Positions 2,185 through 29,818 of a stretch of 32,344 nt of DNA are shown here, piece by piece. The DNA is taken from positions 1 to 32,344 of the forward strand of contig JAFRPY010000039.1 in assembly GCA_017428925.1 (NCBI GenBank), written 5' to 3'. Below the pieces are notes generated by a model. It was not told the DNA's origin and ran no database searches. It was given only the letters and a program-made list of their open reading frames with translations. Position numbers and translations under genes: made by a program. The stretch is from Prevotella sp. Lineage in GTDB: Bacteria > Bacteroidota > Bacteroidia > Bacteroidales > Bacteroidaceae. The stretch's first letter is position 1; every line of letters starts with the position of its first letter.

Positions 2185-2382
2185 TCCGACCTGCCCGCAA
2201 ACAGCGTTCGAGTTGCCAAACTTTATCATTCGAGTTGTAATTTCAATGAAATTGCAAAGTAAAATCAATGAAATTGCTGAGCAATTTCAATTAAATTGGT
2301 CTGCAATTTCATTGAAATTACAATTCAAAAGATAGGGATTGGCAATCAGAATGATGGATTCTGACAAGTCGAACGATGGGGA
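2185..2382. repeat. Degenerate tandem array A, 22-bp period
   Basis: Nine consecutive 22-bp windows from 2185 show phase-locked matches. 'ttcgagttg' recurs at 2207 and 2229. 'tcaatgaa' or a one-base variant ends the four units closing at 2250, 2272, 2294 and 2316. 'gatgg' recurs at 2353 and 2375. The core units are near-palindromic; the first and last of them form a perfect 22-bp inverted repeat (2235-2256 with 2302-2323). Similarity slides along the array, each unit sharing a different half with its neighbour. It lies 80-100 nt upstream of the M15 peptidase promoter. No spacers are present. Confidence 0.7.
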
Positions 2383-2459
2383 GAATGTGTCTCTGTGCTT
2401 AGTTAAAATTCTATTTAGATATTTTTTACGCTCAAAAAAGATAATTAAATCTCTTTCTC

Positions 2460-2490
2460 TTCGCTGAATCAAAAAATTACACTAATTTTG
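2460..2490 (+). promoter_or_regulatory. Promoter abutting the M15 peptidase start
   Basis: TTCG (2460-2463), a 19-nt spacer and TAATTTTG (2483-2490). The box ends only 4 nt before the GTG at 2495, so the transcript would be leaderless or nearly so. Confidence 0.6.
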
Positions 2491-2494
2491 CAGC

Positions 2495-3214
2495 GTGAAA
2501 GAAAAGATTCTATATTGTTTACTCTTGTGGGGTGTTTTCTGCATAATGCCCGCTCAGGCCACAATGCCCAATAAAGGTTTCCCACAGAAATGGGTATCAG
2601 CAACAGTGGTGAGCGATGGCGACGTGAAACAAGCTGGTTTGGAACGCTGCTTCACGAGCGAACCCATCAGCGACGAGCTGTTTCAGCGCATGCAGGGCAA
2701 GTCATGGAAAAAGGACTGTCTGATGAAACGCAATGAGTTGCGCTATCTGAAACTGCTCCACCGCAATGCAGAAGGACGAACGCAGTTGGGCGAGATGGTG
2801 GTAAACGAGAAGATTGCCGACAAGGTGATTCGCATATTCCGCAAACTTTACGAAGCTGGCTATCGCATTGAGAGGGTGGTGCTGGTTGACGATTACGATG
2901 GCGACGACGAACATTCGATGGAAACAAACAACACTTCGTCGTTCAACTATCGAACTGTTCCTGGACAAAAGCGGCTCTCGAAGCATGCACAGGGACTGGC
3001 CATCGACCTTAATCCCCGCTACAATCCATACGTGACGCGACGTGGCATTTCGCCAAAGAACGGAAAGGAATTTGCCAACAACCGCGAAAACCGGAAGGAC
3101 ATTCCCTACAAAATTGACCATCAGGACCTGGCCTTCAAACTATTCAAGGCAGAAGGTTTCACATGGGGCGGTGACTGGCGCTCTTCGAAGGACTATCAGC
3201 ACTTTGAGTATTAA
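2495..3214 (+). CDS. Secreted M15-family peptidase (D-Ala-D-Ala carboxypeptidase-like)
   Basis: This 239-residue protein has a signal peptide (residues 1-22, cleavage after AQA) and is therefore periplasmic or exported. The C-terminal half carries the zinc-binding signature of peptidase family M15: SKHAQGLAIDLNP at about 162-174 (His and Asp ligands) and a closing HFEY at the very C-terminus. Family members cleave peptidoglycan stem peptides (carboxypeptidase or L,D/D,D-endopeptidase); the exact bond cannot be told here. The GTG start is chosen because the next in-frame ATG would delete the signal peptide. It probably forms a unit with the Cys/His-rich protein 30 nt downstream, although the functions look unrelated. 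Confidence 0.85.
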   Translation: MKEKILYCLLLWGVFCIMPAQATMPNKGFPQKWVSATVVSDGDVKQAGLERCFTSEPISDELFQRMQGKSWKKDCLMKRNELRYLKLLHRNAEGRTQLGEMVVNEKIADKVIRIFRKLYEAGYRIERVVLVDDYDGDDEHSMETNNTSSFNYRTVPGQKRLSKHAQGLAIDLNPRYNPYVTRRGISPKNGKEFANNRENRKDIPYKIDHQDLAFKLFKAEGFTWGGDWRSSKDYQHFEY

Positions 3215-3244
3215 TCCCACGAACTATATTAATAATATAATAAG

Positions 3245-3595
3245 GTGAGAACAGAAATACGCAGAACGATTATCGCGCGCTTGCTTTTGGCAGTGTTCCT
3301 GCCAATGCTCGTCGCCACCACACTCCACACCCACGAGGTTGTGCAGGGTGATGTCTGCGTAGAATGTGTGAACCACACGCCGCATGCCGGCCATTTTTCC
3401 GCTTCCCATCAACTTTTAGACGATTGTGTGCTTTGCCAGCTATCCACCCTACCCTATCTGGCGGCCGCAATTACATTATTCACTTCCTATTGTTTTATCA
3501 GCAAGGCACACATTTTGTTGGATGAACTGTCGGTTCCATCCCTGTCAGTGTCTTGCCCTACACTTCGAGGTCCTCCTTCAATTAATTTGGACTGA
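3245..3595 (+). CDS. Cys/His-rich small exported or membrane protein (putative metal-handling partner)
   Basis: A 116-residue protein with an N-terminal hydrophobic segment (about 11-26) and a second one at about 70-88. Between them is a metal-ligand-rich stretch: CVEC at 38-41, four histidines between 44 and 55, and CVLC at 61-64. A GTG start is used. It lies 40 nt upstream of the TonB-dependent receptor. The arrangement resembles the small DUF2946-type proteins found next to copper or zinc receptors in other phyla, but that resemblance is architectural only. I infer a role in binding or sensing a transition metal at the envelope. No homology search was possible. Confidence 0.6.
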   Translation: MRTEIRRTIIARLLLAVFLPMLVATTLHTHEVVQGDVCVECVNHTPHAGHFSASHQLLDDCVLCQLSTLPYLAAAITLFTSYCFISKAHILLDELSVPSLSVSCPTLRGPPSINLD

Positions 3596-3635
3596 GAATG
3601 TAGGAAATTTAAAATAAAACAATAGAAACAATAAA

Positions 3636-5645
3636 ATGAAAGCAATAAAATTTTTGATTTTACTGCTCTTCACGAGTGCATATAGCTATGCACAGGAAGA
3701 GCAAGACACGTGCGTACATCTGCACGAAGTGGTGGTGACCGGACTGACGGGTTCCACACACATCAACCATATCCCGTCGCCCGTCAGTGTGATTTCAGCC
3801 AATGAACTGCAGAAAATCACTTCAACCAACGTTATCGATGCTATTGCCAAACATCCTGGTATCTCGCAAATTACGACCGGTAGCGGTATTTCAAAACCCG
3901 TCATCCGAGGATTGGGATACAACCGAGTACTTGTAGTCAACGACGGCATCAGGCAAGAAGGACAACAATGGGGAGACGAACACGGAATAGAAATCGACGG
4001 TTCAGCCGTACATTCGGTGGAAGTGATGAAAGGGCCGGCATCGCTGATGTACGGTTCGGATGCAATGGCGGGCGTGGTCATCATGCACGATGCGCCCATA
4101 CAGGTACTCGGCACGATGGCCGGCAGCGTGGAAGGTGGCTGGCAGTCGAATGCCAACCTGTGGAACTATTCCGTGAACTTTGCCGGTAACCAGCAGGGAT
4201 TCGTATGGGACTGGAGATGGAGTCAGAAACACGCCGGGGAATTTGAAAATGCCATCAATCATCAAGTGAGAAATTCCCAGTTTGCAGAGCAGGCGCTTAG
4301 TGGAATGCTGGGATTCAACAAGAATTGGGGATTCAGTCATCTGAAACTCTCGTACTATCACCTGAAGCCTGGTATTGTAGAGGAAAGCGATGAAGAGGAA
4401 GAAGAACTTGAGTCACCATTCCAGCAGATTCATCACTACAAGGTTGCATTGGACAACATGTTCCGATTGGGCGAAGGACAACTGAAGGCGCTGATAGGTT
4501 ATCAGCAGAACCGGCGCCAAGAGTATGAGGAGCCCGATGAATGTGGACTCGATTTCAAACTTCATTCGTTGAACTACGACCTGCGCTATGTGTCACCTTC
4601 GTGGAGCGGATGGACCATGAACTTCGGTGCCAACGGAATGTGGCAGCAGTCGCAGAATCTGGGCACCGAATTTCTCATTCCGTCGTATAATCTATTCGAT
4701 GTGGGAGTATTTGCGACGGCATCTAAAGACTTTATGGAGAAAGTTCACCTGAGCGGTGGCGTAAGATTCGACACTCGTCATCTGCACAGCAATTCATTGG
4801 AGGACGATGGGGAAATGAGGTTCGAACAATTCAGCCGAACGTTCAATGGATTCACGGGCAGCGTGGGTGCCATCTATAATATCACGCCAAAACTCGACTT
4901 AAGGGTTAATGTGGCAAGGGGATTCCGAGCACCTAACCTGAGCGAGTTGGGAAGCAATGGAGAACATGAAGGCACTCTGCGCTACGAGATTGGCAACAAA
5001 GACCTTGATCCGGAAGGTTCGTGGCAATTCGACTTCGGCATCGACTATGCCGGCGAAATCTTCTCAACGAAAGTTTCGCTGTTTGCCAATCGCATCTACA
5101 ACTTCATCTTCATGGAGAAAACGGGAGCAATGGCCGAAGGAAAAGACGTATTCAACTACAAGCAAGGCGATGCACGGCTGTTAGGATTCGAGGGTACTGT
5201 TATCCTGCACCCCATTAGCCGTTTGCACTTCGAGGATTCATTCTCATACGTGGATGCCCAGCAGCAGAATCAGTCCGACGATGCCAAGTACCTGCCCTTC
5301 ACCCCGGCTCCGCGCTGGCTCTCTATGCTGCACTATGACATCAATAGCCGTTCGAAAGCAATACAGAATACGTTTGCTGAAGTGGAAATGGAATGTAATT
5401 TAGAACAGAACCACGTACACACGGCCTATAATACGGAAACCCGAACGCCGGCATACGTGCTTTGGAACGCTTCGGCAGGTACCGATATCATGCTCAATGG
5501 CAAACGGTTGGTCAAGCTGACACTTTCGGCTCAGAACATTTTCAACCGTGCCTATCAAAACCATCTGAACAGGCTGAAGGAAGGCGGTTTCTATAACATG
5601 GGGCGCAATATATGCATTAAGGCTATCGTCCCGCTAAGTTTGTAA
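3636..5645 (+). CDS. TonB-dependent outer-membrane receptor
   Basis: A 669-residue outer-membrane receptor with a signal peptide ending in AYSYAQ (20). A TonB-box-like HEVVVTG sits at 30-36. The plug domain covers about 45-150 (PVSVISANEL, GISKPVIRGLGYNRVLVVNDG, MKGPASLMYGSDAMAGVV). A 22-strand barrel follows and ends in an aromatic-poor PLSL. There is no carboxypeptidase-like N-terminal extension and no SusD gene, so this is not a polysaccharide receptor of the SusC type. A predicted surface loop at 249-260 is almost all Glu/Asp, followed by IHHYK. Together with the upstream Cys/His protein this favours a metal-ion or metal-complex substrate, such as zinc or copper, over a glycan. The substrate is inferred. 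Confidence 0.85.
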   Translation: MKAIKFLILLLFTSAYSYAQEEQDTCVHLHEVVVTGLTGSTHINHIPSPVSVISANELQKITSTNVIDAIAKHPGISQITTGSGISKPVIRGLGYNRVLVVNDGIRQEGQQWGDEHGIEIDGSAVHSVEVMKGPASLMYGSDAMAGVVIMHDAPIQVLGTMAGSVEGGWQSNANLWNYSVNFAGNQQGFVWDWRWSQKHAGEFENAINHQVRNSQFAEQALSGMLGFNKNWGFSHLKLSYYHLKPGIVEESDEEEEELESPFQQIHHYKVALDNMFRLGEGQLKALIGYQQNRRQEYEEPDECGLDFKLHSLNYDLRYVSPSWSGWTMNFGANGMWQQSQNLGTEFLIPSYNLFDVGVFATASKDFMEKVHLSGGVRFDTRHLHSNSLEDDGEMRFEQFSRTFNGFTGSVGAIYNITPKLDLRVNVARGFRAPNLSELGSNGEHEGTLRYEIGNKDLDPEGSWQFDFGIDYAGEIFSTKVSLFANRIYNFIFMEKTGAMAEGKDVFNYKQGDARLLGFEGTVILHPISRLHFEDSFSYVDAQQQNQSDDAKYLPFTPAPRWLSMLHYDINSRSKAIQNTFAEVEMECNLEQNHVHTAYNTETRTPAYVLWNASAGTDIMLNGKRLVKLTLSAQNIFNRAYQNHLNRLKEGGFYNMGRNICIKAIVPLSL

Positions 5646-5693
5646 AAATGCTAAAAAACTGCACGAAATCATTCCTTATATAAAAAATAATCG

Positions 5694-5701
5694 TAACTTT
5701 G
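5694..5701 (+). promoter_or_regulatory. -7 box for the TMEM43-family gene
   Basis: TAACTTTG at 5694-5701 lies about 50 nt upstream of the ATG at 5752. No convincing -33 element is visible at the expected distance. Confidence 0.5.
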
Positions 5702-5751
5702 TAGACAAAGTTGAATCATCAACCTTTAATACAAATATAAAAAAAGAATCT

Positions 5752-7113
5752 ATGGCTTATCAAGAAACTACCAGAACCGGCTATGGTACCCGAGTGAAAA
5801 ATTCATTTGGAGGTATCGGCGTAGGCTTTCTGCTGTTCATCGCCGGAACCATCATGCTATGGTGGAACGAAGGCAGCGCCGTGAAGACCGACAAAATGCT
5901 CAACGAATCAGAGAAAGTTGCGGTTCACATTGACAATGTGACCACACTCGATCCTTCGCTTGAAGGTAAACTCATTCATGCCTCGGCACTGGCCACGACT
6001 ACCGACACGCTTCGTGACGAAGCTTTTGGCGTGAAAGAGAATGCCATCGCGCTGAACCGATATGTTGAATACTACCAATGGGTGGAACACAGTTCGAGCG
6101 AATCGAAAGACAAACTGGGCGGTGCCGAAGAAACCACTACGACCTATACCTATAGCAAGCAGTGGGTTTCGGAACCCATCGATGCCTCTACTTTCCACGA
6201 TCCCGAATACAAAAACGTGAAGAATGGAGCCATCATCAAGGTAGATAACAATCATTTGTATGCTGAAAATGTCACTTTCGGTGCATACAAATTGCCGCAG
6301 TTCATGATCAACAGCATCTCGTCAGGAAACGACTTTGCCAGCGTGAACCCCACCGAGCAACAGTTGCGCCAATGGGACAAGGACATAGAGCGCATCCAGC
6401 GACAGCTGGGACGGGCAACGGCAACCACGAAGGCCACCATTGAAGAACCAAAGGAAAGCCCAGCACCAGTTGTCGTTAACGACTCGTCGAAGACTGACAG
6501 CATCGCACCTGTCGATACCATCAAGACGGAACCCGCCAAGGTGGGCGGCTACACGGCCACATACGTACACGCCGGAGAAGGCAAACTCTACTTTGGACTT
6601 AACGAGGGCATGCCCGAAGTGGGCGACGTGAGAATCAACTTCAGAGTCGCCAAACCACACGAAATTTCGCTGATGGGCGTTGTTCAGGGCAACACATTCA
6701 CTTCTTATACCGCCAAAAACGGCAAGACGTTCTCCGATGTGGTCAACGGGGTGAAGAGCATGGACGAAATGTTTGCCAGCCGCCACAAGGCAAACACCTT
6801 CTGGCTATGGGTGTTCCGAGTGATTGGCCTGATTATGGTTGTCAGCGGACTGAAGGGAATCTTCGGAATATTGACCACGTTGCTCAAGGTTGTTCCGTTC
6901 TTGTCGAGCATTATGGGATTCGGCGTTTCCGTCGTTTGTGGTGTGCTGGGCTTCATCTGGACATTGCTTGTTGTGGCACTTGCATGGCTCTTCTATCGCC
7001 CGCTCGTCAGCATCTGTCTGCTGGCAGTGGTGGCCGCCGTCGTTTTCTTCTTCTGGAAACGCGGAAAGGAAAAAAGACCCATCCCCGGCCCCTCCCTAAA
7101 TGGAGGGGAGTAG
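5752..7113 (+). CDS. TMEM43-family membrane protein
   Basis: A 453-residue protein with one N-terminal membrane helix (about 19-38, ending LWWNEGSAVKT), a large extracytoplasmic domain, and a cluster of three to four hydrophobic helices from about 343 to 440. This layout and the N-terminal FLLFIAGTIMLWWNEG pattern match the TMEM43/LUMA family (PF07787), which has bacterial members of unknown function. A Lys/Pro/Thr-rich linker at about 225-265 interrupts the soluble domain. The last residues (PIPGPSLNGGE) are encoded by a GC-rich palindromic repeat rather than by family sequence, so the original stop was probably a few codons earlier. It is likely co-transcribed with the DUF6935-like gene downstream. 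Confidence 0.8.
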   Translation: MAYQETTRTGYGTRVKNSFGGIGVGFLLFIAGTIMLWWNEGSAVKTDKMLNESEKVAVHIDNVTTLDPSLEGKLIHASALATTTDTLRDEAFGVKENAIALNRYVEYYQWVEHSSSESKDKLGGAEETTTTYTYSKQWVSEPIDASTFHDPEYKNVKNGAIIKVDNNHLYAENVTFGAYKLPQFMINSISSGNDFASVNPTEQQLRQWDKDIERIQRQLGRATATTKATIEEPKESPAPVVVNDSSKTDSIAPVDTIKTEPAKVGGYTATYVHAGEGKLYFGLNEGMPEVGDVRINFRVAKPHEISLMGVVQGNTFTSYTAKNGKTFSDVVNGVKSMDEMFASRHKANTFWLWVFRVIGLIMVVSGLKGIFGILTTLLKVVPFLSSIMGFGVSVVCGVLGFIWTLLVVALAWLFYRPLVSICLLAVVAAVVFFFWKRGKEKRPIPGPSLNGGE

Positions 7114-7171
7114 ATAGTAATATAGCATCCCAATAGCCTCCCCTTTGGGGAGGTTTGGAGGGGCTCCTTTA
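7077..7171. repeat. Pair of GC-rich palindromic intergenic repeats
   Basis: The first hairpin pairs CCCCTCC 7089-7095 with GGAGGGG 7102-7108 and lies inside the 3' end of the TMEM43 gene. The second, at 7136-7170 (CCTCCCC/GGGGAGG then TTTGGAGGGGCTCCTTT), fills the gap before the next gene. A near-identical copy of the second lies at 30847-30880, and a related hairpin (CCCCTCCTT/AAGGAGGGG) at 29506-29526. Confidence 0.75.
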
Positions 7172-7185
7172 AAAAGAACAATTAT

Positions 7186-7692
7186 ATGGAAGATAATAAA
7201 ACGAAAACTATCACGTTTGCAGGCATTCCGCAGAATATGGGCCAGTTGCAGGCCATGCGGGAATTCAGCCTTCAGGATGAGTTCGAAGTGGCAGCGCTGG
7301 TGGTGGCTGTGCTCTGCAACTATGAGCGCGACACCGAAGGAACGCTGGCCATGATTGATGCGCTGCGAGGTCCCGAACCCCTGAACGCCTACGGAAAACA
7401 GTTCCTGCGCGACCGCCTCAGCGGCAAGCAATACAAGACCTTCTCGTTCTTCGAGGGGTCAAGTCCGGCAAACGACTACACGCCAACGGCACCCTACACC
7501 ATCAAGGTGAGCAGCAATCCCTATTCGTATCAGAATGAGAACTATGCCACGCTCTACCTGAAGTCTTCAGGAGCCGACAGCGCACGCCCTATTACGCTCC
7601 GAAAGAAACCGAGCACGGGACAATGGTTTGTGGTGGATTTCAATTTCCTTGCCGACATCCGCATCCCAACTTCGCAGGACGCCTGGGCATAG
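7186..7692 (+). CDS. DUF6935-like protein
   Basis: A 168-residue cytosolic protein without signal peptide. From memory it matches the Bacteroidales DUF6935 family: an N-terminal TFAGIPQNMGQLQA, a central FFEGSSPANDYTPTAPYT, then NPYSY, RPITLRKK and a terminal PxSQDxWA-type ending. In that family these proteins often accompany membrane or stress-related genes, and no biochemical role is known to me. It starts at an ATG 15 nt after a GC-rich repeat and is convergent with trmB, the two stops being 3 nt apart. Confidence 0.7.
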   Translation: MEDNKTKTITFAGIPQNMGQLQAMREFSLQDEFEVAALVVAVLCNYERDTEGTLAMIDALRGPEPLNAYGKQFLRDRLSGKQYKTFSFFEGSSPANDYTPTAPYTIKVSSNPYSYQNENYATLYLKSSGADSARPITLRKKPSTGQWFVVDFNFLADIRIPTSQDAWA

Positions 7693-7695
7693 GCA

Positions 7696-8451
7696 TCAGA
7701 CGTGAGTATCGCTTCCGCTCCGCTTATCACGGCGATAAGAGCGGTAGTCGTCGAGCTCAATCTCAATTTCAGGTTCCGCCAGTTCTCCTTTGCGAGGCAG
7801 GCGGAACTTTTGGTATTTGATATTCAGCCCACGGTCCATCCACATCTTCTCGTAGTAAGTCTGGATTGAAAGGATTGGGCCGGCTCCATCGCGATACAAG
7901 TCTTCCGTTCTGAACAGCACCGGCAGGTGGTTTTTGTCTACCATATAGGAAGTATAGGTAAACAGGAAATTTGAGTCGGTCTTCAGGTGAATAATGCCTC
8001 CGTCAACCAGAAAGCGCCGATAGCGGTTCATGAAATATGTACTGGTCAGGCGTTTACGGGGGTTCTTCATCTGCGGATCGCTGAACGTAAGCCATATTTC
8101 CTGAACTTCATCTTCGCCGAAGAATCGGTCGATGATTTCAATGTTAGTGCGTAGAAAGGCCACATTCCCCAATCCTTCTTGTAGAGCCTCGGTGGCACCC
8201 GTCCACATGCGAGCCCCCTTGATGTCAACTCCAATGAAATTCATGTCGGGAAACAGTTTAGCCAGTCCCACGGTGTACTCTCCTTTACCGCAACCGAGTT
8301 CCAAAACAATGGGATTATTGTTCTTGAAATACATCTCGCGCCAATGTCCACGCATCTCAAACGGCACATCGGAAATCACGCCATAAGGATACTGAAAAAC
8401 ATTCTCATAACGCTCCATGTCGGCAAACTTAGCCAATTTCCCTTTTCCCAT
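7696..8451 (-). CDS. trmB: tRNA (guanine-N7)-methyltransferase
   Basis: A 251-residue enzyme that methylates G46 in the variable loop of tRNAs using S-adenosylmethionine. Visible signatures are the SAM-binding [12 protein letters not shown], the acidic strand end [11 protein letters not shown], the catalytic-region [16 protein letters not shown], and the C-terminal RTEDLY. Family length fits. A longer frame begins at 8490, but the -7 box CAAAGGTA (plus-strand reading) at 8468-8475 lies inside it, so the ATG at 8451 is the real start. The C-terminal tail is rich in Asp/Tyr/Arg and slightly longer than in enterobacterial TrmB. Confidence 0.93.
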
Positions 8452-8467
8452 AATCTCAAATTTTCGG

Positions 8468-8475
8468 CAAAGGTA
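8468..8475 (-). promoter_or_regulatory. -7 box for trmB
   Basis: TACCTTTG on the minus strand, 17 nt upstream of the chosen ATG at 8451. It decides between the two possible starts. The -33 region is not recognisable. Confidence 0.6.
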
Positions 8476-8499
8476 CAAATTATTATTCATTCTTCACCC

Positions 8500-8631
8500 T
8501 TCATCACTTATTTTTTGAATCCTTTCCGCTGGTTAAAAGAGTTCTTTCCACTGATTAAATGACTTGCTTCCACTGATTAAAAGAGTTGCTTCCACAGTCT
8601 ATTTGAATCTTTGTTACTGTTATTTGACGGG
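8500..8631. repeat. Degenerate tandem array B, 22-bp period
   Basis: Three well-conserved 22-bp units occupy 8522-8543, 8544-8565 and 8566-8587, built on the core 'cttccactgattaaa' plus 'gactt' or 'gagtt'. Flanking windows 8500-8521 and 8588-8609 still match the second unit at 13 of 22 positions, and 8610-8631 matches with a one-base shift. The array fills the divergent gap between trmB and the phosphatase gene and stops where the latter's -33 region begins. Confidence 0.75.
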
Positions 8632-8635
8632 TTTC

Positions 8636-8666
8636 TTGCACATTTGAAAGATAATCCGTAACTTTG
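8636..8666 (+). promoter_or_regulatory. Promoter for the tyrosine phosphatase gene
   Basis: A TTG at 8636-8638, a 20-nt spacer and TAACTTTG at 8659-8666. The expected start is near 8673, about 33 nt before the ATG. Confidence 0.55.
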
Positions 8667-8705
8667 CCAATAGAAATCTTAACAAAGAAATAATTGAATA
8701 CTGGT

Positions 8706-9209
8706 ATGAAACATAAGATACTCTTTGTCTGTCTTGGCAACATCTGCCGTTCACCGGCGGCCGATGGAGTGATGCACCATTTGGTCGAGTTGGAGGGCAA
8801 AGAGGCTGATTTTGAAATAGACTCGGCAGGCATCGGTTCATGGCACGTCGGAGAACTGCCCGACCGCCGCATGCGCTCTACTGGCGCTAAAAGGGGTTAC
8901 ACTTTCGACCACCGGGCTCGACAGATAGCAATGGCCGACTTTAACCGTTTCGACTATATCATTGGAATGGACACAGAGAACATGGCTACACTTCGCCGAA
9001 TGCAGAAACAATACCTGAGTTCAAATCATAGCGAAGGCTCAAAATGCGCAAGGCTGCTCTGTCTGGCCGACTACCTAAAACATCATCCAGGCCAGGCCAC
9101 CATTCCCGACCCTTATTACGGAAAACAAGCAGACTTTGAGTTTGCCCTCGACCTGATTGAAGATGCCTGCGAGGGACTGCTTGGTGAACTGATACATGAT
9201 GGAAAATAA
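8706..9209 (+). CDS. Low-molecular-weight protein tyrosine phosphatase
   Basis: A 167-residue cytosolic phosphatase. The P-loop CLGNICRS (Cys9 nucleophile, Arg15) is at the N-terminus and the general-acid motif DPYYG (Asp135) is in the C-terminal third, as required for the CX5R low-molecular-weight class. It should dephosphorylate phosphotyrosine or small phosphoester substrates. In Bacteroidales such enzymes often act with BY-kinases, none of which is in this window. A TTG four codons upstream is in frame, but the ATG at 8706 gives the standard family N-terminus. It is monocistronic and ends at a shared terminator. Confidence 0.92.
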   Translation: MKHKILFVCLGNICRSPAADGVMHHLVELEGKEADFEIDSAGIGSWHVGELPDRRMRSTGAKRGYTFDHRARQIAMADFNRFDYIIGMDTENMATLRRMQKQYLSSNHSEGSKCARLLCLADYLKHHPGQATIPDPYYGKQADFEFALDLIEDACEGLLGELIHDGK

Positions 9210-9240
9210 AAAAACGAGGAACTATTCCTCGTTTTCTTTT
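9208..9240. terminator. Bidirectional intrinsic terminator
   Basis: An 11-bp perfect stem (9211-9221 with 9225-9235) is flanked by an A-run on the left and CTTTTTT on the right, so it works for both the phosphatase (+) and mgtC (-). The TAG stop of mgtC is the three-base loop CTA at 9222-9224. Confidence 0.85.
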
Positions 9241-10315: not shown

Positions 10316-10337
10316 AGCTTATATAAGTTTTAAAGGA

Positions 10338-11360: not shown

Positions 11361-11403
11361 AATGTATTGAATTCTTATGTTCTTTTTAAAACTATTCTGA
11401 CCG

Positions 11404-11434
11404 CAAAAGTACACAATTTATTGCAAATTGGCAA
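11404..11434 (-). promoter_or_regulatory. Promoter for the ilvE unit
   Basis: TACTTTTG on the minus strand at 11404-11411, with TTG at 11432-11434 (20-nt spacer). The predicted start is near 11397, giving a leader of about 37 nt. Confidence 0.55.
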
Positions 11435-11472
11435 TTTTTTTGATAAAAAATAGGTTCTTTCACGTTATTAGA

Positions 11473-11664: not shown

Positions 11665-11680
11665 AATTTATGGAAATGAG

Positions 11681-14842: not shown

Positions 14843-14846
14843 CTGT

Positions 14847-17746: not shown

Positions 17747-17751
17747 ACAAT

Positions 17752-20087: not shown

Positions 20088-20093
20088 GTAAAA

Positions 20094-21041: not shown

Positions 21042-21045
21042 ATAT

Positions 21046-22388: not shown

Positions 22389-22393
22389 AAAAC

Positions 22394-22440
22394 AAAAAAG
22401 GGAATGTGCCCTTTAAGATGCATTCCCTATTAATGTTTTC
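22394..22440. terminator. Bidirectional terminator between the acetyltransferase and lutC
   Basis: AGGGAATG 22399-22406 pairs with CATTCCCT 22421-22428. On the minus strand the stem is followed by TTTTTTGTTTTTT, a strong signal for the lut operon. On the plus strand only a weaker ATTAATGTTTTC follows. Confidence 0.75.
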
Positions 22441-23034
22441 TTATTCTGGCATCAGCAGCACCGTAACACTGCGTGCTGCCTGTGCGCCCATAACCAAGAC
22501 CTGAGCAATATCGGCTGTTTTTGAAGGTCCGCTAATGAACGTACCATAGCCGTCATACTGCTTGTCAAATTCGATGCGCTTGTAAGCCTCGTGCATATTA
22601 TTCACGATTTGGCTCTTGGGCATCAAGATAATCAGATTCTCGGATATGAAGCAGACTGCCTTTTCTTTCATCTGCTGCGGTATCCAGATACAGCCATTCT
22701 CTGCCACACCAAACATTCCCCTGATGATGCCCACATCGGTGCCGTTCAGGTCACGTGCTCGTCCCACGGTATCAGGATTTCTCGTTGCGATGGTTATCTC
22801 GGGCAGATTACTTGCTATCTCCTTGGCATCAGGATAGAGTTCCTTAATCAACGTGTTAATATCGCGATCTGGAGACACTTCTATCACCTGACCACCCACA
22901 CTTTCGCTCATCTTTATAAATTGCACCAAAGGCTCTGGATAGGTGATAGCTTTAATGTCGTCGAGCGAAGGCATGTCGTATCTGACCTTCACATTCTCAC
23001 GATACCTTTTCAGTATATCTTCTTTGTTACTCAT
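22441..23034 (-). CDS. lutC: LutC-type LUD-domain protein of lactate utilisation
   Basis: A 197-residue LUD-domain (YkgG-like) protein. It is the third component of the LutABC system that oxidises L-lactate to pyruvate. The C-terminal FISGPSKTADIAQVLVMGAQAARSVTVLL carries the family's GPSxTADIE-like block (here TADIAQ, a slight departure). The N-terminal region and central WIPQQMKEKAV fit the family. It is the last gene of the minus-strand lut operon, 42 nt after lutB. Confidence 0.88.
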   Translation of the reverse strand: MSNKEDILKRYRENVKVRYDMPSLDDIKAITYPEPLVQFIKMSESVGGQVIEVSPDRDINTLIKELYPDAKEIASNLPEITIATRNPDTVGRARDLNGTDVGIIRGMFGVAENGCIWIPQQMKEKAVCFISENLIILMPKSQIVNNMHEAYKRIEFDKQYDGYGTFISGPSKTADIAQVLVMGAQAARSVTVLLMPE

Positions 23035-23076
23035 AGAAAAATCTCAATTATCTGTTAAATCAATATAAATACCCAC

Positions 23077-24447
23077 TTATTTAACCTTTCCTTTCTTCCA
23101 AAGAGTGTGGAACGACTGTTTCGGGAATGTCATCATCTTATGTCCGTCGGCCCATGGATTCAATCCGCAGTTTATGAGAGCGTCGGGAACAAAGTTGGCT
23201 AAGGGTGCGAATTTTAGGGCCGTGTTGTAAATGCCACTGCTACCATAGACCATATTCATACCCTTGCACATAATCTTCTTCTGTGGATTGGCCGTACCAA
23301 AGTCGTCCAGTTGCTGACGCCACTGATAGACTTGGTCACCGAGATTAACTTTCACGGGGCATACCGTCTGACAACTCAGGCACAGCGTACAAGCCGAAAC
23401 ATTACCACTATGCTGATATTTGTCGCGCAACATACCAAGGTTAATGCCGATAGGCCCAGGGATAAAATAGCTGTAGGAATAACCGCCCGAACGACGATAT
23501 ACAGGGCAGGTGTTCATACACGAGCCGCAACGTATACACTTCAGTGCCTCCCAGTGCTCCTCATTGCCTATCCATTCCGAACGGCCATTGTCCACCAAAA
23601 CAATATGCATCGGAGCTGCCGTCGGACGAGCCTTCCGGAAATGCGACGTATAGGTAGTTGTAGGCTGTCCCGTTCCAGCACGACAAAGCATGCGCTGGAA
23701 CACAGCCAGACTGTCGTAGTTGGGTACCACCTTCTCAAGTCCCATGGCTACAATGTGCAGCTTGGGGCATGAAGTGCTCATGTCGGCATTACCCTCGTTG
23801 GTGCATACCACGATATCGCCCGTTTTGGCAATACCGAAGTTAGCTCCTGTCATTCCGGCATCTGCCGTCAGGAACTCGTTACGAAGACTCAGGCGAGCCT
23901 GATAAGTAAGATACGTCGGATCGTGGTTGCCTTTTTCCGAACCGAGTTTTTCCTCAAACAATTCGCCCACGTCGTCATGGTTCAAGTGAATGGCAGGCAT
24001 GACGATATGGCTCGGTTTCTGCCCTTTCAACTGAATGATGCGTTCACCCAGGTCCGTCTCCACCACCTCGATACCATGTTGCTCCAGATAGGGATTCATC
24101 TCGCATTCCTCTGTGAGCATCGATTTCGACTTCACGATTTTCTTGACGTTGGCTTTCTTCAATATACCCAGTACAATTTCATTAAACTCGTCGGCATCTT
24201 TTGCCCAGTGAACGATGCAACCGTTTTTCTCGGCATTGGTGGCGAACTGCGCCAGGTATTCATCCAAGTGAGTTACCGTATGACGCTTAATCTGTGATGC
24301 TTTCTCGCGCAACTGCTCCCACTCTTCCAAGCCGTAAGCCATGTTATCGCGCTTGGTACGTACGCTCCAGAAAGTAGCGTCGTGCCATTTCGAATATGTC
24401 TGGTTCTTCAAGAACTCCTTTGCTGCTTTACTGTGTCCTGTACTCAT
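23077..24447 (-). CDS. lutB: LutB-type iron-sulfur lactate oxidation protein
   Basis: A 456-residue protein joining an N-terminal LUD domain (to about 290, with VKSKSMLTEECEMN and DAGMTGANFGIA) to a bacterial-type ferredoxin module. Two 4Fe-4S motifs are visible, CIRCGSCMNTCPVYR at about 305 and CTLCLSCQTVCPVK at about 352. A short C-terminal extension ends in a Trp-rich segment. It is the electron-transfer core of LutABC, cytosolic and redox active. Gene order lutA-lutB-lutC on the minus strand matches the standard operon. Confidence 0.93.
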   Translation of the reverse strand: MSTGHSKAAKEFLKNQTYSKWHDATFWSVRTKRDNMAYGLEEWEQLREKASQIKRHTVTHLDEYLAQFATNAEKNGCIVHWAKDADEFNEIVLGILKKANVKKIVKSKSMLTEECEMNPYLEQHGIEVVETDLGERIIQLKGQKPSHIVMPAIHLNHDDVGELFEEKLGSEKGNHDPTYLTYQARLSLRNEFLTADAGMTGANFGIAKTGDIVVCTNEGNADMSTSCPKLHIVAMGLEKVVPNYDSLAVFQRMLCRAGTGQPTTTYTSHFRKARPTAAPMHIVLVDNGRSEWIGNEEHWEALKCIRCGSCMNTCPVYRRSGGYSYSYFIPGPIGINLGMLRDKYQHSGNVSACTLCLSCQTVCPVKVNLGDQVYQWRQQLDDFGTANPQKKIMCKGMNMVYGSSGIYNTALKFAPLANFVPDALINCGLNPWADGHKMMTFPKQSFHTLWKKGKVK

Positions 24448-24486
24448 AATTAATTAGTTTAATAATTTGAGTTAACTACCTGGTTA

Positions 24487-25221
24487 TTATAACCCTGCGG
24501 CTAATATCTCAACCACATGTTTAAACTGTATATTCATGCCTTCCTTCTTGGCAACGCCTGCCATGTGCATCAGGCACGAACAGTCGGGACCTGTCACGTA
24601 TTCGGCACCCGTCTGGATATGCCTCTCCACTTTGTCCTTGCCCATCTGTGCCGAGATGGCCGTTTCCTCAACCGAGAACATACCTCCAAAGCCACAGCAC
24701 TCGTCGGGCCGTTCGGGTTCCACCACTTCGCATCCGTCAACCAGTTGAAGAAGGTCACGAATCTTGTTGAATTTCTTCACGTGCTCTTCCGATGGAGAAG
24801 AAAGTCCTAATTCCCTCACACCATGGCACGAATTGTGCAGACTCACCTTGTGGGGAAACGTTCCCAGCGGATGATCCACCTTCACCACGTCGTGCAAGAA
24901 CTCAACCACATCCATGCACTTTTTGGCCGATTCACACTCATGACCAGCCAACAGCCGTTCATAATTGATTTTCACAAAAGCCGTGCAGCTCACCGATGGA
25001 GCCACCACATAGTCAAAGCCCTTGAATTTCTCCTCAAACTTCTCCGCCAGGGGCACCGCCATCTTCTCGAATCCGGCGTTGGCCATAGGCTGGCCGCAAC
25101 ACGTCTGCCCCTCGGGATAGTCCACGTCGATTCCCAGATGCTTCAACAGCTTATACGTGGCCACACCTACCTCTGGATAGAGTGCGTCCACATAACAGGG
25201 GATGAATAGTCCGATTTTCAT
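24487..25221 (-). CDS. lutA: LutA-type CCG-domain lactate oxidation protein
   Basis: A 244-residue protein with two CCG cysteine-rich domains. The first reads TCCGQPMANAGFE from about Cys41; the second reads ECCGFGGMFS near 175-185, with an upstream HNSCHGVRELG. Such domains bind an Fe-S cluster and are found in heterodisulfide-reductase-like and glycolate/lactate oxidases. As the first gene of lutABC it should act with LutB and LutC in L-lactate to pyruvate oxidation. No lactate permease or regulator is adjacent. A minus-strand -7 box lies at 25270-25277. Confidence 0.92.
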   Translation of the reverse strand: MKIGLFIPCYVDALYPEVGVATYKLLKHLGIDVDYPEGQTCCGQPMANAGFEKMAVPLAEKFEEKFKGFDYVVAPSVSCTAFVKINYERLLAGHECESAKKCMDVVEFLHDVVKVDHPLGTFPHKVSLHNSCHGVRELGLSSPSEEHVKKFNKIRDLLQLVDGCEVVEPERPDECCGFGGMFSVEETAISAQMGKDKVERHIQTGAEYVTGPDCSCLMHMAGVAKKEGMNIQFKHVVEILAAGL

Positions 25222-25269
25222 AATGTTATTGTAAATAGATTTTTAGTTAATGTCTGATAGTTCTGTGTG

Positions 25270-25277
25270 CAAATATA
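25270..25277 (-). promoter_or_regulatory. -7 box for lutABC
   Basis: TATATTTG on the minus strand, giving a leader of roughly 40 nt to the lutA ATG. It is about 60 bp from the divergent topB promoter. Confidence 0.5.
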
Positions 25278-25338
25278 ATAAAAAATCCGTCAACTTCTTT
25301 ATTTTTCGCCGTTTTTTTTTAGTATCGATTATTTTTTT

Positions 25339-25346
25339 TACCTTTG
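25339..25346 (+). promoter_or_regulatory. -7 box for topB
   Basis: TACCTTTG at 25339-25346 behind a T-rich run; the ATG at 25375 lies about 22 nt beyond the expected start. Confidence 0.6.
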
Positions 25347-25374
25347 CATCCCAAATCATTCATCGCAGAGAAAA

Positions 25375-27204
25375 ATGATCGTTTGCATTGCAGAGAAACC
25401 CAGCGTGGCTCGCGATATTGCCCGCATCATCGGAGCCAACAGTTCACGCCAAGGCTACATGGAGGGCAACGGCTATCAGGTGACCTGGACATTCGGCCAC
25501 CTATGCACGTTGAAAGAACCCCACGACTACACCCCGATGTGGAAGTCGTGGAGCCTTTCGTCGCTGCCCATGATTCCCCAGCGCTTCGGCATTAAGCTTA
25601 TCGAAGACGATGGAATAAAGAAACAATTTGCCATTATCGAGAAACTAATGCAGGCTGCCGACGGCATCGTCAATTGCGGCGACGCCGGACAAGAGGGTGA
25701 ACTCATTCAGCGGTGGGTGATGCAGAAGGCACAGGCCAAATGCCCGGTGAAACGGTTGTGGATTTCATCGATGACCGACGAGGCCATCCGCGAAGGTTTC
25801 AGCCAGTTGAAAGACCAAGCCGAATACCAGCCTCTCTATTTGGCGGGACTGTCACGTGCCATTGGCGACTGGATTCTCGGAATAAATGCCACGCGACTTT
25901 ATACGCTGAAATATGGCCAAAACCGACAAGTGCTCTCCATTGGCCGCGTACAGACACCAACATTGGCACTCATCGTGAACCGTCAGAAAGAAATCGACAA
26001 CTTCAAGCCCGAACCCTATTGGGTGCTTTCCACCGTTTACCGTGACACCACCTTTACGGCCACCCAAGGCAAGTTCATGAGCCGGGAAGAAGGCGAGGCC
26101 GCTTTCCAACTCATTGCCGACCAGCCTTTCGAGGTTACCGACGTGCAAAAGAAAGCGGGCAAGGAACAGCCACCGCAGCTCTACGACCTCACGTCACTCC
26201 AGGTAGATTGCAACAAAAAGTTCGGTTATTCGGCCGAGACAACGCTCAATCTTATCCAAAGCCTCTACGAAAAAAAAGTCACCACCTATCCCCGTGTCGA
26301 CACTCAATATCTCTCCGACGACATCTACCCCAAGTGCCCGGCCATCATGAACGGTCTTTTCCAGACCAAATTCGGAGGCGAGGCTCCATACGCCGAACTC
26401 GTCCGTCCGCTTGGCGGAAAGCCGCTGAAGAAAAGCAAGAAAGTATTCGATACCTCGAAGGTGACCGATCACCATGCCATCATCCCAACGGGCGTGCCCC
26501 CACAGGGACTAAGCGACATGGAGCGCCGCGTCTTCGACCTTGTTGCCCGTCGTTTCATCGGAGCTTTCTATCCTGAGTGCAAATTCTCCACGACCACCGT
26601 TCTCGGCAAGGCCGGTGAAGTGGAGTTCAAGGTCACCGGCAAGGAAATTATCGATCCCGGCTGGCGAATCGTCCAACAGGTTGCTGTGCCACAGCAACCC
26701 ACTCAAGACGAAGAAAAGGAGAAAAAAGACGAGGAACGGACGTTGCCCACCTTCGTAAAAGGGGAAAGCGGCCCTCACACACCTACCCTCACCGAAAAAC
26801 AGACCACCCCCCCACCCTACTACACCGAAGCCACCCTGCTTCGGGCAATGGAGACCGCCGGCAAATTTGTCGACGACGAAGAGCTGCGCGCCGCCCTCAA
26901 GGAAAACGGCATCGGCCGTCCTTCCTCTCGCGCCAGCATTATCGAGACACTTTTCAAGCGCCATTACATTCGTCGCGAGCGCAAACGCCTCGTAGCCACC
27001 CCGACGGGCATCGAACTTATCGATCTCATCAAGGAAGAACTGCTGAAAAGTTGCGAACTGACGGGCATTTGGGAAAAGAAACTGCGCGACATAGAGCATC
27101 GCAAGTACGATCCCGCACAGTTCATTCAGGAACTGAAACAGCAAATCACCGAAATCGTCAACCAAGTGCTCGCCGACAACACTAACCGGAGAATCAGTTC
27201 ATAG
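25375..27204 (+). CDS. topB: DNA topoisomerase III
   Basis: A 609-residue type IA topoisomerase that passes single DNA strands and decatenates recombination or replication intermediates. The Toprim domain has the N-terminal IAEKPSVARDIA and the metal site GDAGQEGEL at 102-110. The active-site tyrosine is Tyr305 in TTYPRVDTQYL, and later HHAIIPTG and GIGRPSSRASIIETL blocks are present. There is no C-terminal zinc-finger extension, so it is shorter than E. coli TopB. A Glu/Lys linker at about 442-456 interrupts the core. It is a chromosomal-looking gene with its own promoter; no conjugative genes are near, so I do not read it as a plasmid TraE-type copy. Confidence 0.93.
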   Translation: MIVCIAEKPSVARDIARIIGANSSRQGYMEGNGYQVTWTFGHLCTLKEPHDYTPMWKSWSLSSLPMIPQRFGIKLIEDDGIKKQFAIIEKLMQAADGIVNCGDAGQEGELIQRWVMQKAQAKCPVKRLWISSMTDEAIREGFSQLKDQAEYQPLYLAGLSRAIGDWILGINATRLYTLKYGQNRQVLSIGRVQTPTLALIVNRQKEIDNFKPEPYWVLSTVYRDTTFTATQGKFMSREEGEAAFQLIADQPFEVTDVQKKAGKEQPPQLYDLTSLQVDCNKKFGYSAETTLNLIQSLYEKKVTTYPRVDTQYLSDDIYPKCPAIMNGLFQTKFGGEAPYAELVRPLGGKPLKKSKKVFDTSKVTDHHAIIPTGVPPQGLSDMERRVFDLVARRFIGAFYPECKFSTTTVLGKAGEVEFKVTGKEIIDPGWRIVQQVAVPQQPTQDEEKEKKDEERTLPTFVKGESGPHTPTLTEKQTTPPPYYTEATLLRAMETAGKFVDDEELRAALKENGIGRPSSRASIIETLFKRHYIRRERKRLVATPTGIELIDLIKEELLKSCELTGIWEKKLRDIEHRKYDPAQFIQELKQQITEIVNQVLADNTNRRISS

Positions 27205-27301
27205 TTCATCGTTCTTGATTGCAATAAAAAGCCTTTCTTTCCGTTATGTTTCTTGACGGCAAGCCTGTACCAGGCTAACCATGAACCATGAACTAAAAAC
27301 T

Positions 27302-29359
27302 ATGAACTATAAAAAGTTCACCATATACATATTGTTGTGCCTGCTCCTCATCTCATGCGGGGCCGACCACTATATGAAGAAAGGCGAGAAGGCCATGGCC
27401 ATCGGCGAATACTACGATGCCTCAAACTACTTCAAGCGAGCCTACTCCGCTACACCCACCAAGCAGCGCGACCTGCGTGGCAGGCGAGCCGCCCGTATGG
27501 CCGATGCCTACCAAAAGATGGGCTCAACGCAAAAAGCCATCGCTGCATATCGCAACCAAATCCGTTTTAAACAAGACTCCCTGCTCACCCATCTCGACTT
27601 CGCCCGCCAACTGCTCAAAAACGGCAACTATAAAGAGGCAGCCGAAGAATTCCAGACCGTGCTCGACTCCCTGCCCGCCAGCCAACTGGCCCGCAACGGA
27701 CTGAAATCTGCCCAGACGGCACCCGAAATCAAACAGCTGGGTTCTCGCTATACCGTCAAGCGAATGGACATTTTCAACTCGCGCCGGTCCGATTTCTCCC
27801 CCATGCTTTGCGGCGACGAGCACGACCAGTTGTTCTTCACGTCAACCCGCAACGAAGCCCAGGGCGACGAACTCAGCGGCATTACCGGCACCAAGGCTGG
27901 CGACATCTTCTATGTGCAGAAAGACGACAAAGGCAAATGGGGCAAAGTGCAAACCATCGAGAGCGGGCTCAACACCGCCTACGATGAGGGTGCCTGCTGT
28001 TTCTCTCCCGACCAGCGCACCATGTATTTCACCCAATGCGCCTCCGACCCCTCCTATCCCCGCTTTGCAACAATCATGACCAGCAACCGCTCAGATGCGG
28101 CCTGGGGCAAGGGAACACTCTTGCAAATTTCACGCGACACCCTTTCCAGCTATGCCCATCCAGCCATCTCGCCCGACGGTAATTGGCTCTATTTCGTCAG
28201 CGACATGCCCGGCGGCGAAGGGGGACTCGACATCTGGCGAGTGCAAATTACCGCAGCCGGACTCGGCGGAGTAGAAAACATTGGCAAACCCGTCAATACC
28301 GAGGGTGACGAAATGTTCCCAACCTTCCGTCCCAACGGCGACCTTTATTTCTCCAGCGACGGTCATCCCGGTATGGGCGGACTCGACATCTTCATCGCCC
28401 GAGTGGGCAGCGACCGCAAATACCACCTCGAACATCCGGGCTATCCCCTGAATTCACAGGGCGACGATTTCGGCATGACCTTCGAGGGACCCCACAATCG
28501 CGGCTTCTTTTCCAGCAACCGCGGCGACGGACGCGGATGGGACCATATCTATTCATTCGAGAATCCAGAAATCATCCAGACCGTTAAGGGATGGGTTTAC
28601 GAGATGGATGGCTACGAGTTGCCTGCCGCCCAGGTATATCTTGTTGGCAACGACGGCACCAACCTGAAACTCTCCGTTAAGATGGACGGTTCGTTCGAAC
28701 AGGTCGTCAATCCCGGCGTTGACTATGTGATGCTTGCCACATGCCCCGGATTCCTCAACCACAAAGAAGAAATCAGCATCCGTCCGACGGAAAAATCCGA
28801 AGAACACGTCCTGCAGTTCCCGCTGGCCAGCATCCGCGTTCCCGTGCTGATAGACAACATTTTCTACGATTTCGACAAGGCTACCCTGCGCCCCGAATCC
28901 TCGGCAGCCCTCGACGAACTCGTAAAAATGCTTCAGGAAAACTCCAACATCACCATCGAACTCTCCGCCCATGCCGACTATCGCGGCTCCGCAACCTACA
29001 ACAAAAACCTTTCGCAGCGACGCGCAGAAACCGTTGTCCGCTATCTCATCGACCACGGTGTGGCCAAAGACCGTCTTACGCCCGTGGGTTATGGCAAGGA
29101 GAAGCCCAAGACCATTCGCAAGAAAGTTGTTGAGAAATACCCGTGGCTCAAGGAAAACGATGTGCTCACCGAGGAATTCATCAAGGCACTTGACCCCGAA
29201 AAGCAGGAAATATGCAACCAGCTGAACCGCCGAACCGAATTCACCGTGCTGCGCACCACCTACGGTATGTTCGACGAAAAGGGGCAACTGAAAAATCCTC
29301 CCAAGCCCCGTCAACAGGAAGAAAAAGGTTCAGACGAAGACTTATACCTCGACTTCTGA
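27302..29359 (+). CDS. porE: PorE-like TPR/WD40/CRD/OmpA lipoprotein of type IX secretion
   Basis: A protein of about 685 residues with a lipoprotein signal (LLLISC, lipidated Cys19). Domain order: TPR-like helices at about 25-140 (MKKGEKAMAIGEYYDASNY), a PD40/WD40-type beta-propeller at about 150-420 (repeated SPDG-like and DIWR blocks), a carboxypeptidase-regulatory-like domain at about 428-498, and an OmpA C-terminal peptidoglycan-binding domain from about 515 (NIFYDFDKATLRPES, ADYRGS, NLSQRRAETV). This exact order and length match PorE (PG1058) of the Porphyromonas type IX secretion system, which anchors the machinery to peptidoglycan. An upstream in-frame ATG at 27281 lies in repetitive DNA; the ATG at 27302 gives a normal signal peptide. 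Confidence 0.85.
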   Translation: MNYKKFTIYILLCLLLISCGADHYMKKGEKAMAIGEYYDASNYFKRAYSATPTKQRDLRGRRAARMADAYQKMGSTQKAIAAYRNQIRFKQDSLLTHLDFARQLLKNGNYKEAAEEFQTVLDSLPASQLARNGLKSAQTAPEIKQLGSRYTVKRMDIFNSRRSDFSPMLCGDEHDQLFFTSTRNEAQGDELSGITGTKAGDIFYVQKDDKGKWGKVQTIESGLNTAYDEGACCFSPDQRTMYFTQCASDPSYPRFATIMTSNRSDAAWGKGTLLQISRDTLSSYAHPAISPDGNWLYFVSDMPGGEGGLDIWRVQITAAGLGGVENIGKPVNTEGDEMFPTFRPNGDLYFSSDGHPGMGGLDIFIARVGSDRKYHLEHPGYPLNSQGDDFGMTFEGPHNRGFFSSNRGDGRGWDHIYSFENPEIIQTVKGWVYEMDGYELPAAQVYLVGNDGTNLKLSVKMDGSFEQVVNPGVDYVMLATCPGFLNHKEEISIRPTEKSEEHVLQFPLASIRVPVLIDNIFYDFDKATLRPESSAALDELVKMLQENSNITIELSAHADYRGSATYNKNLSQRRAETVVRYLIDHGVAKDRLTPVGYGKEKPKTIRKKVVEKYPWLKENDVLTEEFIKALDPEKQEICNQLNRRTEFTVLRTTYGMFDEKGQLKNPPKPRQQEEKGSDEDLYLDF

Positions 29360-29360
29360 G

Positions 29361-29483
29361 GTTTAGTCGTTTAGTTGTTTGGGAGATTGGTTGTTTGGTC
29401 ATTTAGGGAAATTGGCCGTTTGGTCGTTGGGGAGAATCCGTTTGGTCGTTTGGGAGAATCCATTTGGTCGTTTAGGGAGATTG
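29361..29483. repeat. Minisatellite D downstream of porE
   Basis: Five degenerate units begin at 29369, 29393, 29418, 29440 and 29462, with spacings of 24, 25, 22 and 22 nt. They are built on 'gtttggtcgttt' plus 'gggaga' and 'atcc'. The last two intervals are exactly 22 nt. No coding potential is apparent. Confidence 0.7.
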
Positions 29484-29505
29484 CCCGTAGGGATGGTTCT
29501 CACTC

Positions 29506-29564
29506 CCCCTCCTTGGAAAGGAGGGGCCAGGGGTGGTTGATAGAGGGGCCAGGGGTGGTTGATA
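29506..29564. repeat. GC-rich palindrome followed by a perfect 22-bp tandem duplication
   Basis: CCCCTCCTT 29506-29514 pairs with AAGGAGGGG 29518-29526. The segments 29521-29542 and 29543-29564 are identical 22-mers beginning 'gaggggccagggg'. The palindrome belongs to the same family as those at 7077-7171 and 30847-30880. Confidence 0.8.
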
Positions 29565-29642
29565 ACATTTTTCTTTACATTTCCCCCACTACAATCCGCA
29601 TAAAAGTAGCAAAAAGAACGTATGATTTTTGCAGATTCAATG

Positions 29643-29818
29643 TCTTTGAAATGCAAAAAACAAGCATCCGCTCAGCAAAAAATAGGGATTTAAAGTCTAA
29701 ATCCAGTTCATTTAAAGTTCAAATGATAAGCAATTAAAGTCCAAATAAAAAGCAATCAGACTTCAACTGACCGTCAATTGAAGTCCAAAAGCCTATGATT
29801 TAAAGTTCGGGAAATGAA
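29643..29818. repeat. Degenerate tandem array C, 22-bp period
   Basis: Eight 22-bp windows from 29643. Six clear units start at 29687, 29709, 29731, 29753, 29775 and 29797, each opening with 'gattta', 'cattta' or 'caatt' followed by 'aaagt' and 'caaa'. Read on the minus strand they share 'actttaa(a/t)t' and a 'ttttg' end, with about seven variable bases between. The windows at 29643 and, more weakly, 29621 continue the phase (15 of 22 matches between 29643-29664 and 29731-29752). It lies between the convergent porE and higA genes. Confidence 0.75.

What the first reader, a model, noticed from the sequence alone, without database searches (positions are those of the whole stretch)
2185..29818. 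Dispersed intergenic arrays that share a 22-bp period
Arrays at 2185-2382, 8500-8631 and 29643-29818 each keep a 22-bp register over six to nine units although single units are strongly diverged. An exact 22-bp duplication (29521-29564) lies close to the third. In a common phase, 2244-2265 and 2310-2331 each match 29731-29752 at 16 of 22 positions, so two arrays 27 kb apart look related. The period is two helical turns, cannot be coding (22 is not a multiple of 3), and there are no spacers. This could be a binding array for a DNA-organising or regulatory protein, or a slowly decaying selfish repeat family. I know of no described function.
Basis: partly seen in the sequence, partly recalled or inferred. 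Interest (0 to 1): 0.7.

Follow-up and report, generated by a model that had tools for sequence, protein, structure and literature searches.

The report
Period-locked 22-bp arrays between genes
A Prevotella-like genome and its relatives carry many short repeat arrays between genes whose repeat length is mostly 22 bases although the letters differ from array to array and from species to species, which suggests that the length itself matters.

Summary
In the window, of lags 10-60 only 22 and its multiple 44 stand out. In 920 kb of the same genome, 32 of 50 non-coding tandem-repeat places have period 22 or 44; no other period has more than 5 (TRF: 30 of 49). The 37 arrays found in 952 kb form 23 unit-sequence clusters. 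All five other genus members sampled have 22-bp arrays, as do two other genera of the family. Nine other Bacteroidales families (740 kb) gave 0 of 16 at 22, but 6 of 16 at 21 or 42. Units are alike within a genome; between this genome and relatives similarity is at chance.

Array 1 belongs to a dispersed near-palindromic family (13 places); array 3 sits in a MITE-like element (18 copies aligned); array 2 has one clear relative.

Best reading: intergenic minisatellites, akin to BrickBuilt of Porphyromonas gingivalis, with unit length held near two helical turns, most likely as same-face contact sites for a sequence-tolerant DNA-binding protein. Selfish satellites with an inherited period are a close rival. 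Function is untested; two 21-bp arrays in genus members argue against a strict lock.

The parts
2185..2382 (.). Array 1: nine 22-bp registers; best-conserved units about 2229-2338
   Evidence: lag-22 identity 0.574, 0 of 1000 shuffles; TRF 2239-2319 period 22; column conservation over 13 aligned copies
2165..2391 (+). Family A element around array 1: imperfect palindrome, dispersed in the genome; ends not sharply defined
   Evidence: 13 distinct places at E below 1e-17, longest other match 2165-2391 at 89%; inverted repeat 2184-2278/2280-2374, 74% complementary; alignment
8500..8631 (.). Array 2: six 22-bp registers between two divergent genes (trmB-like methyltransferase and low-molecular-weight phosphotyrosine phosphatase)
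   Evidence: lag-22 identity 0.600, 0 of 1000 shuffles; TRF 8524-8595; Pfam of neighbours; one clear relative in the genome, C28:9046-9120, E 1.3e-5
29416..29480 (.). Short further 22-bp repeat (2.9 copies) in a low-complexity GTTTGGTC stretch; weak
   Evidence: TRF score 100, but 13 of 1000 shuffles match its lag-22 signal over 29360-29500
29521..29564 (.). Exact 22-bp duplication in a different dispersed intergenic repeat
   Evidence: partial hits of this stretch alone
29643..29818 (.). Array 3: eight 22-bp registers
   Evidence: lag-22 identity 0.532, 0 of 1000 shuffles; TRF 29712-29770
29577..29972 (+). Family B element: leader, 22-bp array, tail, long imperfect terminal inverted repeat; ends approximate, read from the alignment
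   Evidence: 18 copies aligned, window included; consensus inverted-repeat score 36 against a maximum of 34 in 500 shuffles; 1 of 15 single copies tested beat all of its 100 shuffles, 2 tied

Best explanation
The arrays are minisatellites that lie between genes and whose unit length is held near two helical turns (22 bp in Prevotella) while their sequence drifts. Shown: the arrays, the excess of period 22 over every other period in this genome, its presence in the genus and in two other genera of the family, and its independence from any one sequence. Inferred: units are gained, lost and homogenised by slippage or unequal exchange; some arrays are carried to new sites by copying elements (families A and B); and the length is kept because successive units must face the same side of the helix for a sequence-tolerant DNA-binding protein that contacts part of each unit. 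Such a lattice would organise or insulate the DNA between transcription units.
For: Period 22 or 44 in 32 of 50 non-coding places in 920 kb, next period 5; TRF 30 of 49; block shuffles of eight lags gave none. 34 non-coding and 0 coding lag-22 places at 50/88 in 952 kb. Five of five other genus genomes and G086 have 22-bp arrays. 23 unit clusters share the length; units of this genome and relatives are not alike beyond chance. Conserved and variable columns cluster within the unit in own arrays (Fisher P 3.8e-4 over 33 arrays, 6 of 33 at p<=0.05; 0.68 for 34 arrays of other lags). Outer units of family A keep some columns and not others, mirrored on both arms. In 27 of 31 array-to-start-codon intervals a TAnnTTTG box (Bacteroidetes -7 element, recalled) lies in between, so most arrays are not in 5' leaders.
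Against: No protein is known and no common motif exists. Column clustering is not significant in relatives (0.21 over 12 arrays), and family members were counted singly, which overstates P. Dyad symmetry is uneven: stem-loop score P 1.7e-4 in own arrays but 0.13 in relatives; whole-unit self-complementarity 0.51 in own clusters. Units within a genome are related, so shared descent could explain the shared length. Two 21-bp arrays lie in genus genomes (L092, L112), G004 has four non-coding places at 21, and G203 and G173 of the same family have one 21 and one 23. Random placement was not simulated for the promoter-box count.
Confidence: 0.4

Rival explanations
1. Selfish or neutral satellites with an inherited period: arrays descend from ancestral 22-bp arrays, spread by transposition or conversion, and diverge by mutation; the length persists only because copying is in register.
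For: Families A and B are dispersed; units are alike within a genome; family B was found in 1 of 200 genus genomes, its own, and family A cores in 10 of 200 with its own (three candidates per genome scored); array 2 is not at the matching site in an 81-93% identical relative contig, where another 22-bp array lies about 290 bp from the end of the alignment.
Against: Sequence similarity between this genome and relatives is at chance while the length is the same; in 920 kb there is no non-coding place at 21 or 23 (one search counts one at 21 before overlaps are resolved), although drift in unit length would be expected.
Confidence: 0.35
2. An enzyme with a 22-bp ruler (nuclease, polymerase or recombinase) makes tandem duplications of that size, and arrays are its by-product.
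For: Many unrelated units at one length; other lineages with another length (21).
Against: No candidate enzyme; within-genome similarity of units is not predicted.
Confidence: 0.1
3. RNA-level elements: transcribed strings of small stem-loops, one per 22 nt.
For: Stem-loop enrichment in own units (P 1.7e-4; arrays of other lags 0.98); among double changes in stems 29 of 73 are complementary against 89 of 379 in mispaired columns (P 0.005).
Against: Double changes are not in excess (17.6% against 17.1%); 5 arrays lie between divergent genes; no Rfam match in the window.
Confidence: 0.1
4. REP-like elements made by a Y1 (RAYT-type) transposase, one of which lies in the window.
For: Y1_Tnp protein at 31319-32137 (-), E 3.8e-11; short intergenic dyads in many copies.
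Against: Four array-bearing genomes (G016, G086, G173, G057) had no Y1_Tnp match, and 13 of 25 genomes examined had one without tracking arrays.
Confidence: 0.03
5. Chance or low-complexity artefact of AT-rich intergenic DNA.
For: Single arrays are short and degenerate.
Against: Excess at 22 alone, none in shuffles, same result by TRF.
Confidence: 0.02

Closest known systems
BrickBuilt minisatellite/MITE of Porphyromonas gingivalis (PMC4596501; abstract and sections 5, 7 part 1 of 2, 8 and 9 read)
   Same: Imperfect tandem units of two helical turns without spacers, intergenic, about 19 places per genome, in a leader-array-tail element with inverted-repeat ends; units with a conserved and a less conserved half; predicted stem-loops; species-limited sequence. 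Family B has the same layout. The paper also says that 41-, 23- and 22-nt direct repeats were noted earlier in strain W83.
   Different: Unit 23 nt against 22; one unit family against 23 unit clusters here; its ends (GAGACC...) differ from family B ends; no class with shared length and free sequence is described in the parts I read.
PINSR, 188-bp intergenic repeat of Prevotella intermedia (PMC4755523; passages and section 14 read)
   Same: Prevotella, intergenic, 177-184 copies, lineage-specific, length like family A (about 190 bp).
   Different: The text mentions no 22-bp period; its consensus is in a figure that is not held, so it could not be compared.
Prokaryotic satellites survey (PMC6749651; abstract and parts 1-2 of 5 read, word search of the rest)
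   Same: Non-coding tandem arrays, some families dispersed.
   Different: No occurrence of Bacteroid-, Prevotella or Porphyromonas in the text; dispersed non-coding families with long repeats reported only for Leptospira interrogans and Methanocella conradii.
TAACTGA direct repeats of Beggiatoaceae, Cyanobacteria and some Bacteroidetes (PMC4679880; abstract and section 12 read)
   Same: Intergenic fixed-length direct repeats, function unknown.
   Different: Heptamer of one sequence, mostly just upstream of start codons in the main genome.
REP/BIME elements with RAYT transposases (recalled)
   Same: Short intergenic palindromes, species-specific sequence.
   Different: No fixed tandem period; Y1 transposase does not track these arrays.

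Membership tests
BrickBuilt | 23-nt tandem unit without spacers | tested here: not met
   unit is 22 bp in all three window arrays
BrickBuilt | intergenic location, multiple copies | tested here: met
   34 non-coding, 0 coding lag-22 places at 50/88 in 952 kb
BrickBuilt | terminal repeats of the GAGACC type | tested here: not met
   family B consensus ends read AGAAAATTCCTGACATTTC
MITE (family B only) | terminal inverted repeats | tested here: met
   consensus score 36, 0 of 500 shuffles as high, maximum 34; single copies mostly not significant (1 of 15)
MITE (family B only) | target-site duplication | tested here: inconclusive
   no clear duplication seen by eye in the alignment; no computed test
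MITE (family B only) | autonomous partner with the same ends | tested here: inconclusive
   right-end search of the own genome gave 12 good matches (E below 1e-15); 11 fall at copies already known and one, C62, is a truncated copy at a contig end; weaker matches were not examined
CRISPR array | conserved repeats separated by unique spacers | tested here: not met
   units are head-to-tail without spacers
REP/BIME | Y1 transposase in the genome | tested here: not met
   none found in four array-bearing genomes
PINSR | 188-bp consensus sequence | not testable with these tools
   consensus only in a figure

The most novel reading that the evidence does not exclude
Bacteroidales genomes contain a trans-acting length ruler (a protein lattice or an enzyme) of 21-23 bp, set per lineage, that keeps about a hundred intergenic arrays per genome at one period while their sequence is free: a bacterial counterpart of satellites whose unit length is tied to the nucleosome.
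Probability: 0.35. Interest if true: 0.85.

Novelty: new variant of a known kind. Interest (0 to 1): 0.6.

Why it matters
Repeat families are normally recognised by sequence. Here the shared trait is the length, so sequence searches miss the class. If the length is selected or set by a machine, the arrays point to an unknown DNA-organising factor in abundant gut and rumen bacteria, and the period offers a direct handle to search for it across genomes. Even if they are selfish, they show unit length outliving sequence.

Tried and rejected
One 22-bp family for everything: rejected, 23 clusters among 37 arrays. Dyad symmetry as a universal trait: not upheld. Contiguous-dyad score: 3 of 23 own and 1 of 17 related arrays at p<=0.05. 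Stem-loop score: 6 of 23 own, Fisher P 1.7e-4; 3 of 17 related, 0.13; 1 of 44 arrays of other lags, 0.98; family members not merged. Whole-unit self-complementarity on clusters: own 1 of 23, P 0.51; related 2 of 16, 0.026; eight 21- or 23-bp arrays from other genomes 3 of 8, 0.004; control 0 of 27. Dyads of unlike sequence within an array lie within 1 bp of multiples of 11 in 34 of 64 pairs against 29 of 103 in control gaps, but this follows largely from repetition plus symmetry; for multiples of 22 alone it is 10 of 64 against 14 of 103. Compensatory change: weak. RAYT origin: rejected. Rfam: no match in the window. Paper searches of the open-licence PMC library showed no description of this class beyond BrickBuilt; of the listed papers I opened five.

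Full report
What was checked. The window is contig C22 of a 3.56-Mb draft genome in 122 contigs. The one named relative found with a window protein is a Prevotella sp. from sheep omasum (84% identity). Lag autocorrelation in 88-base windows shows only lags 22 and 44 at 48 matches or more.

Two arrays belong to dispersed families. Family A (array 1 and flanks) has 13 distinct places at E below 1e-17. In 13 aligned copies the four to five core units are nearly letter for letter the same, while outer units keep only part of their columns (TTCGAGTTGCCAA on the left, TTGGCAA on the right). The element is an imperfect palindrome of about 190 bp. Family B (array 3) was aligned in 18 copies: about 400 bp with leader, 22-bp array and tail, and a long imperfect inverted repeat at the ends that is just significant on the consensus and in 1 of 15 single copies tested. 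Family B was found in 1 of 200 genus genomes, its own; family A cores in 10 of 200 with its own (three candidates per genome were scored). Array 2 has one clear relative in the genome. In the related contig L065 the trmB-like gene aligns up to window 8495, just short of array 2, and no array lies directly there; another 22-bp array lies at L065 5532-5702.

Genome-wide. A first 520 kb (fetched, scanned) gave 17 lag-22 places at 50/88; the next lags are the harmonic 44 (16) and lag 16 (7). Block shuffles tested at eight lags gave none. A second 400 kb gave 13, with 44 (8) and 24 (5) next. The stretches were not blind: C68, C57, C28, C93, C12, C58 and C6 were known to carry matches to the window arrays. 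C38, taken for its length, gave 3 in 200 kb. So density is about 15 to 35 per Mb, roughly 50-120 arrays per genome by extrapolation. With a simple gene caller of my own, 952 kb with the window holds 34 non-coding and 0 coding lag-22 places at 50/88; the next non-coding lag is 16 with 6. At 48/88 there are 37 places, two of them overlapping a called gene by 51-58%. With one lag per place in the 920 kb, 30 are at 22 and 2 at 44 of 50. TRF gives 24 at 22 and 6 at 44 of 49.

Relatives. Five genus members, 398 kb: 10 of 25 non-coding places at 22 and 2 at 44, each genome with at least one at 22. Against this, G004 has four at 21 (some built on 7-bp repeats) and G011 three at 41. Of seven genomes with stretches in other genera of the family, G086 has 4 of 4 at 22 (60 kb); with 20 kb each, G203 has one at 22, one at 21 and one at 19, G173 one at 23, G205 one at 33, G161 and G195 none. 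That is six genomes, the window's genus aside. Nine other Bacteroidales families, 740 kb: 0 of 16 at 22, and 6 of 16 at 21 or 42 in three families, one of which (L200) may be coding. TRF agrees there: 7 at 21, 2 at 42, none at 22, coding not removed. Rest of the class and phylum, 400 kb: two non-coding places, at 24 and 25; TRF has one at 42. In 29 loci of about 5 kb around the OmpA-like gene of genus members there are two places at 22 (L091, L103) and two at 21 (L092, L112). The last two are against a strict lock.

Sequence against length. The 37 own arrays form 23 clusters of unit consensus, the 17 of relatives form 16. Own units resemble each other more than shuffled ones (11.04 of 22 against 10.42; reversed control 10.58); between this genome and relatives they do not (10.55 against 10.53 and 10.55). 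Within-genome similarity exceeds between-genome similarity (11.55 against 10.49; without this genome 13.56 against 10.26; permutation P 5e-4 each), the second figure resting mainly on five arrays each from G004 and G011. So each genome has its own loose dialect and the genus shares the length.

Shape of the unit. Short stem-loops are enriched in own consensus units and not significantly in relatives; other symmetry tests were weaker or negative. In L084 and L082 the unit changes from a TTCCGCT.AGCGGAA type to an AGACTTTAATT type without loss of register; by my own reading of the listing the dyad centres keep their phase. That is two cases, not a test.

Context. Of the 37 places, 18 lie between tandem genes, 9 convergent, 5 divergent, 3 at an edge, 2 overlap a called gene. 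In 27 of 31 array-to-start intervals a TAnnTTTG box lies in between; placement at random in the same gaps was not simulated. Y1 transposases do not track the arrays.

Judgement. The class is real. Its length is kept where its sequence is not, which favours a constraint on length over pure inheritance, but only modestly, because units within a genome are related and exceptions at 21 exist. I commit to a two-turn contact lattice for a sequence-tolerant DNA-binding protein at 0.4, with inherited-period selfish satellites at 0.35. BrickBuilt (PMC4596501) is the closest known thing: family B works like it in layout, but unit length and ends differ, so it is not filed as a member.

Noticed in passing
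31319-32140 (-), with inverted repeat 31279-31299 / 31327-31347: Y1 transposase (PF01797, E 3.8e-11) of the RAYT type flanked by a 95% complementary 21-bp inverted repeat; one of two Y1_Tnp matches in the genome.
   Followed up: partly
29521-29564: Duplicated unit of a dispersed intergenic repeat (GAGGGGCCAGGGGTGGTT type) with many partial hits in the genome.
   Followed up: no
30096-30740 (-): HTH_3 protein next to a HigB-like toxin (PF05015, just over its cut-off): a probable toxin-antitoxin pair.
   Followed up: no
L217 578-664; L197 16867-17062; L149 8981-9061; L150 15598-15671; L211 6194-6427: Arrays of period 23 (G173) and 21 (other families) in other Bacteroidales genomes, three of them with significant self-complementary units.
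   Followed up: partly
G011 stretches L116-L120: Three non-coding places of period 41 in one genus member; P. gingivalis is also reported to have 41-nt repeats (PMC4596501, section 7).
   Followed up: no
L112 1283-1474; L092 3670-3778: 21-bp arrays in genus members near the OmpA-like gene, exceptions to the 22-bp rule.
   Followed up: no
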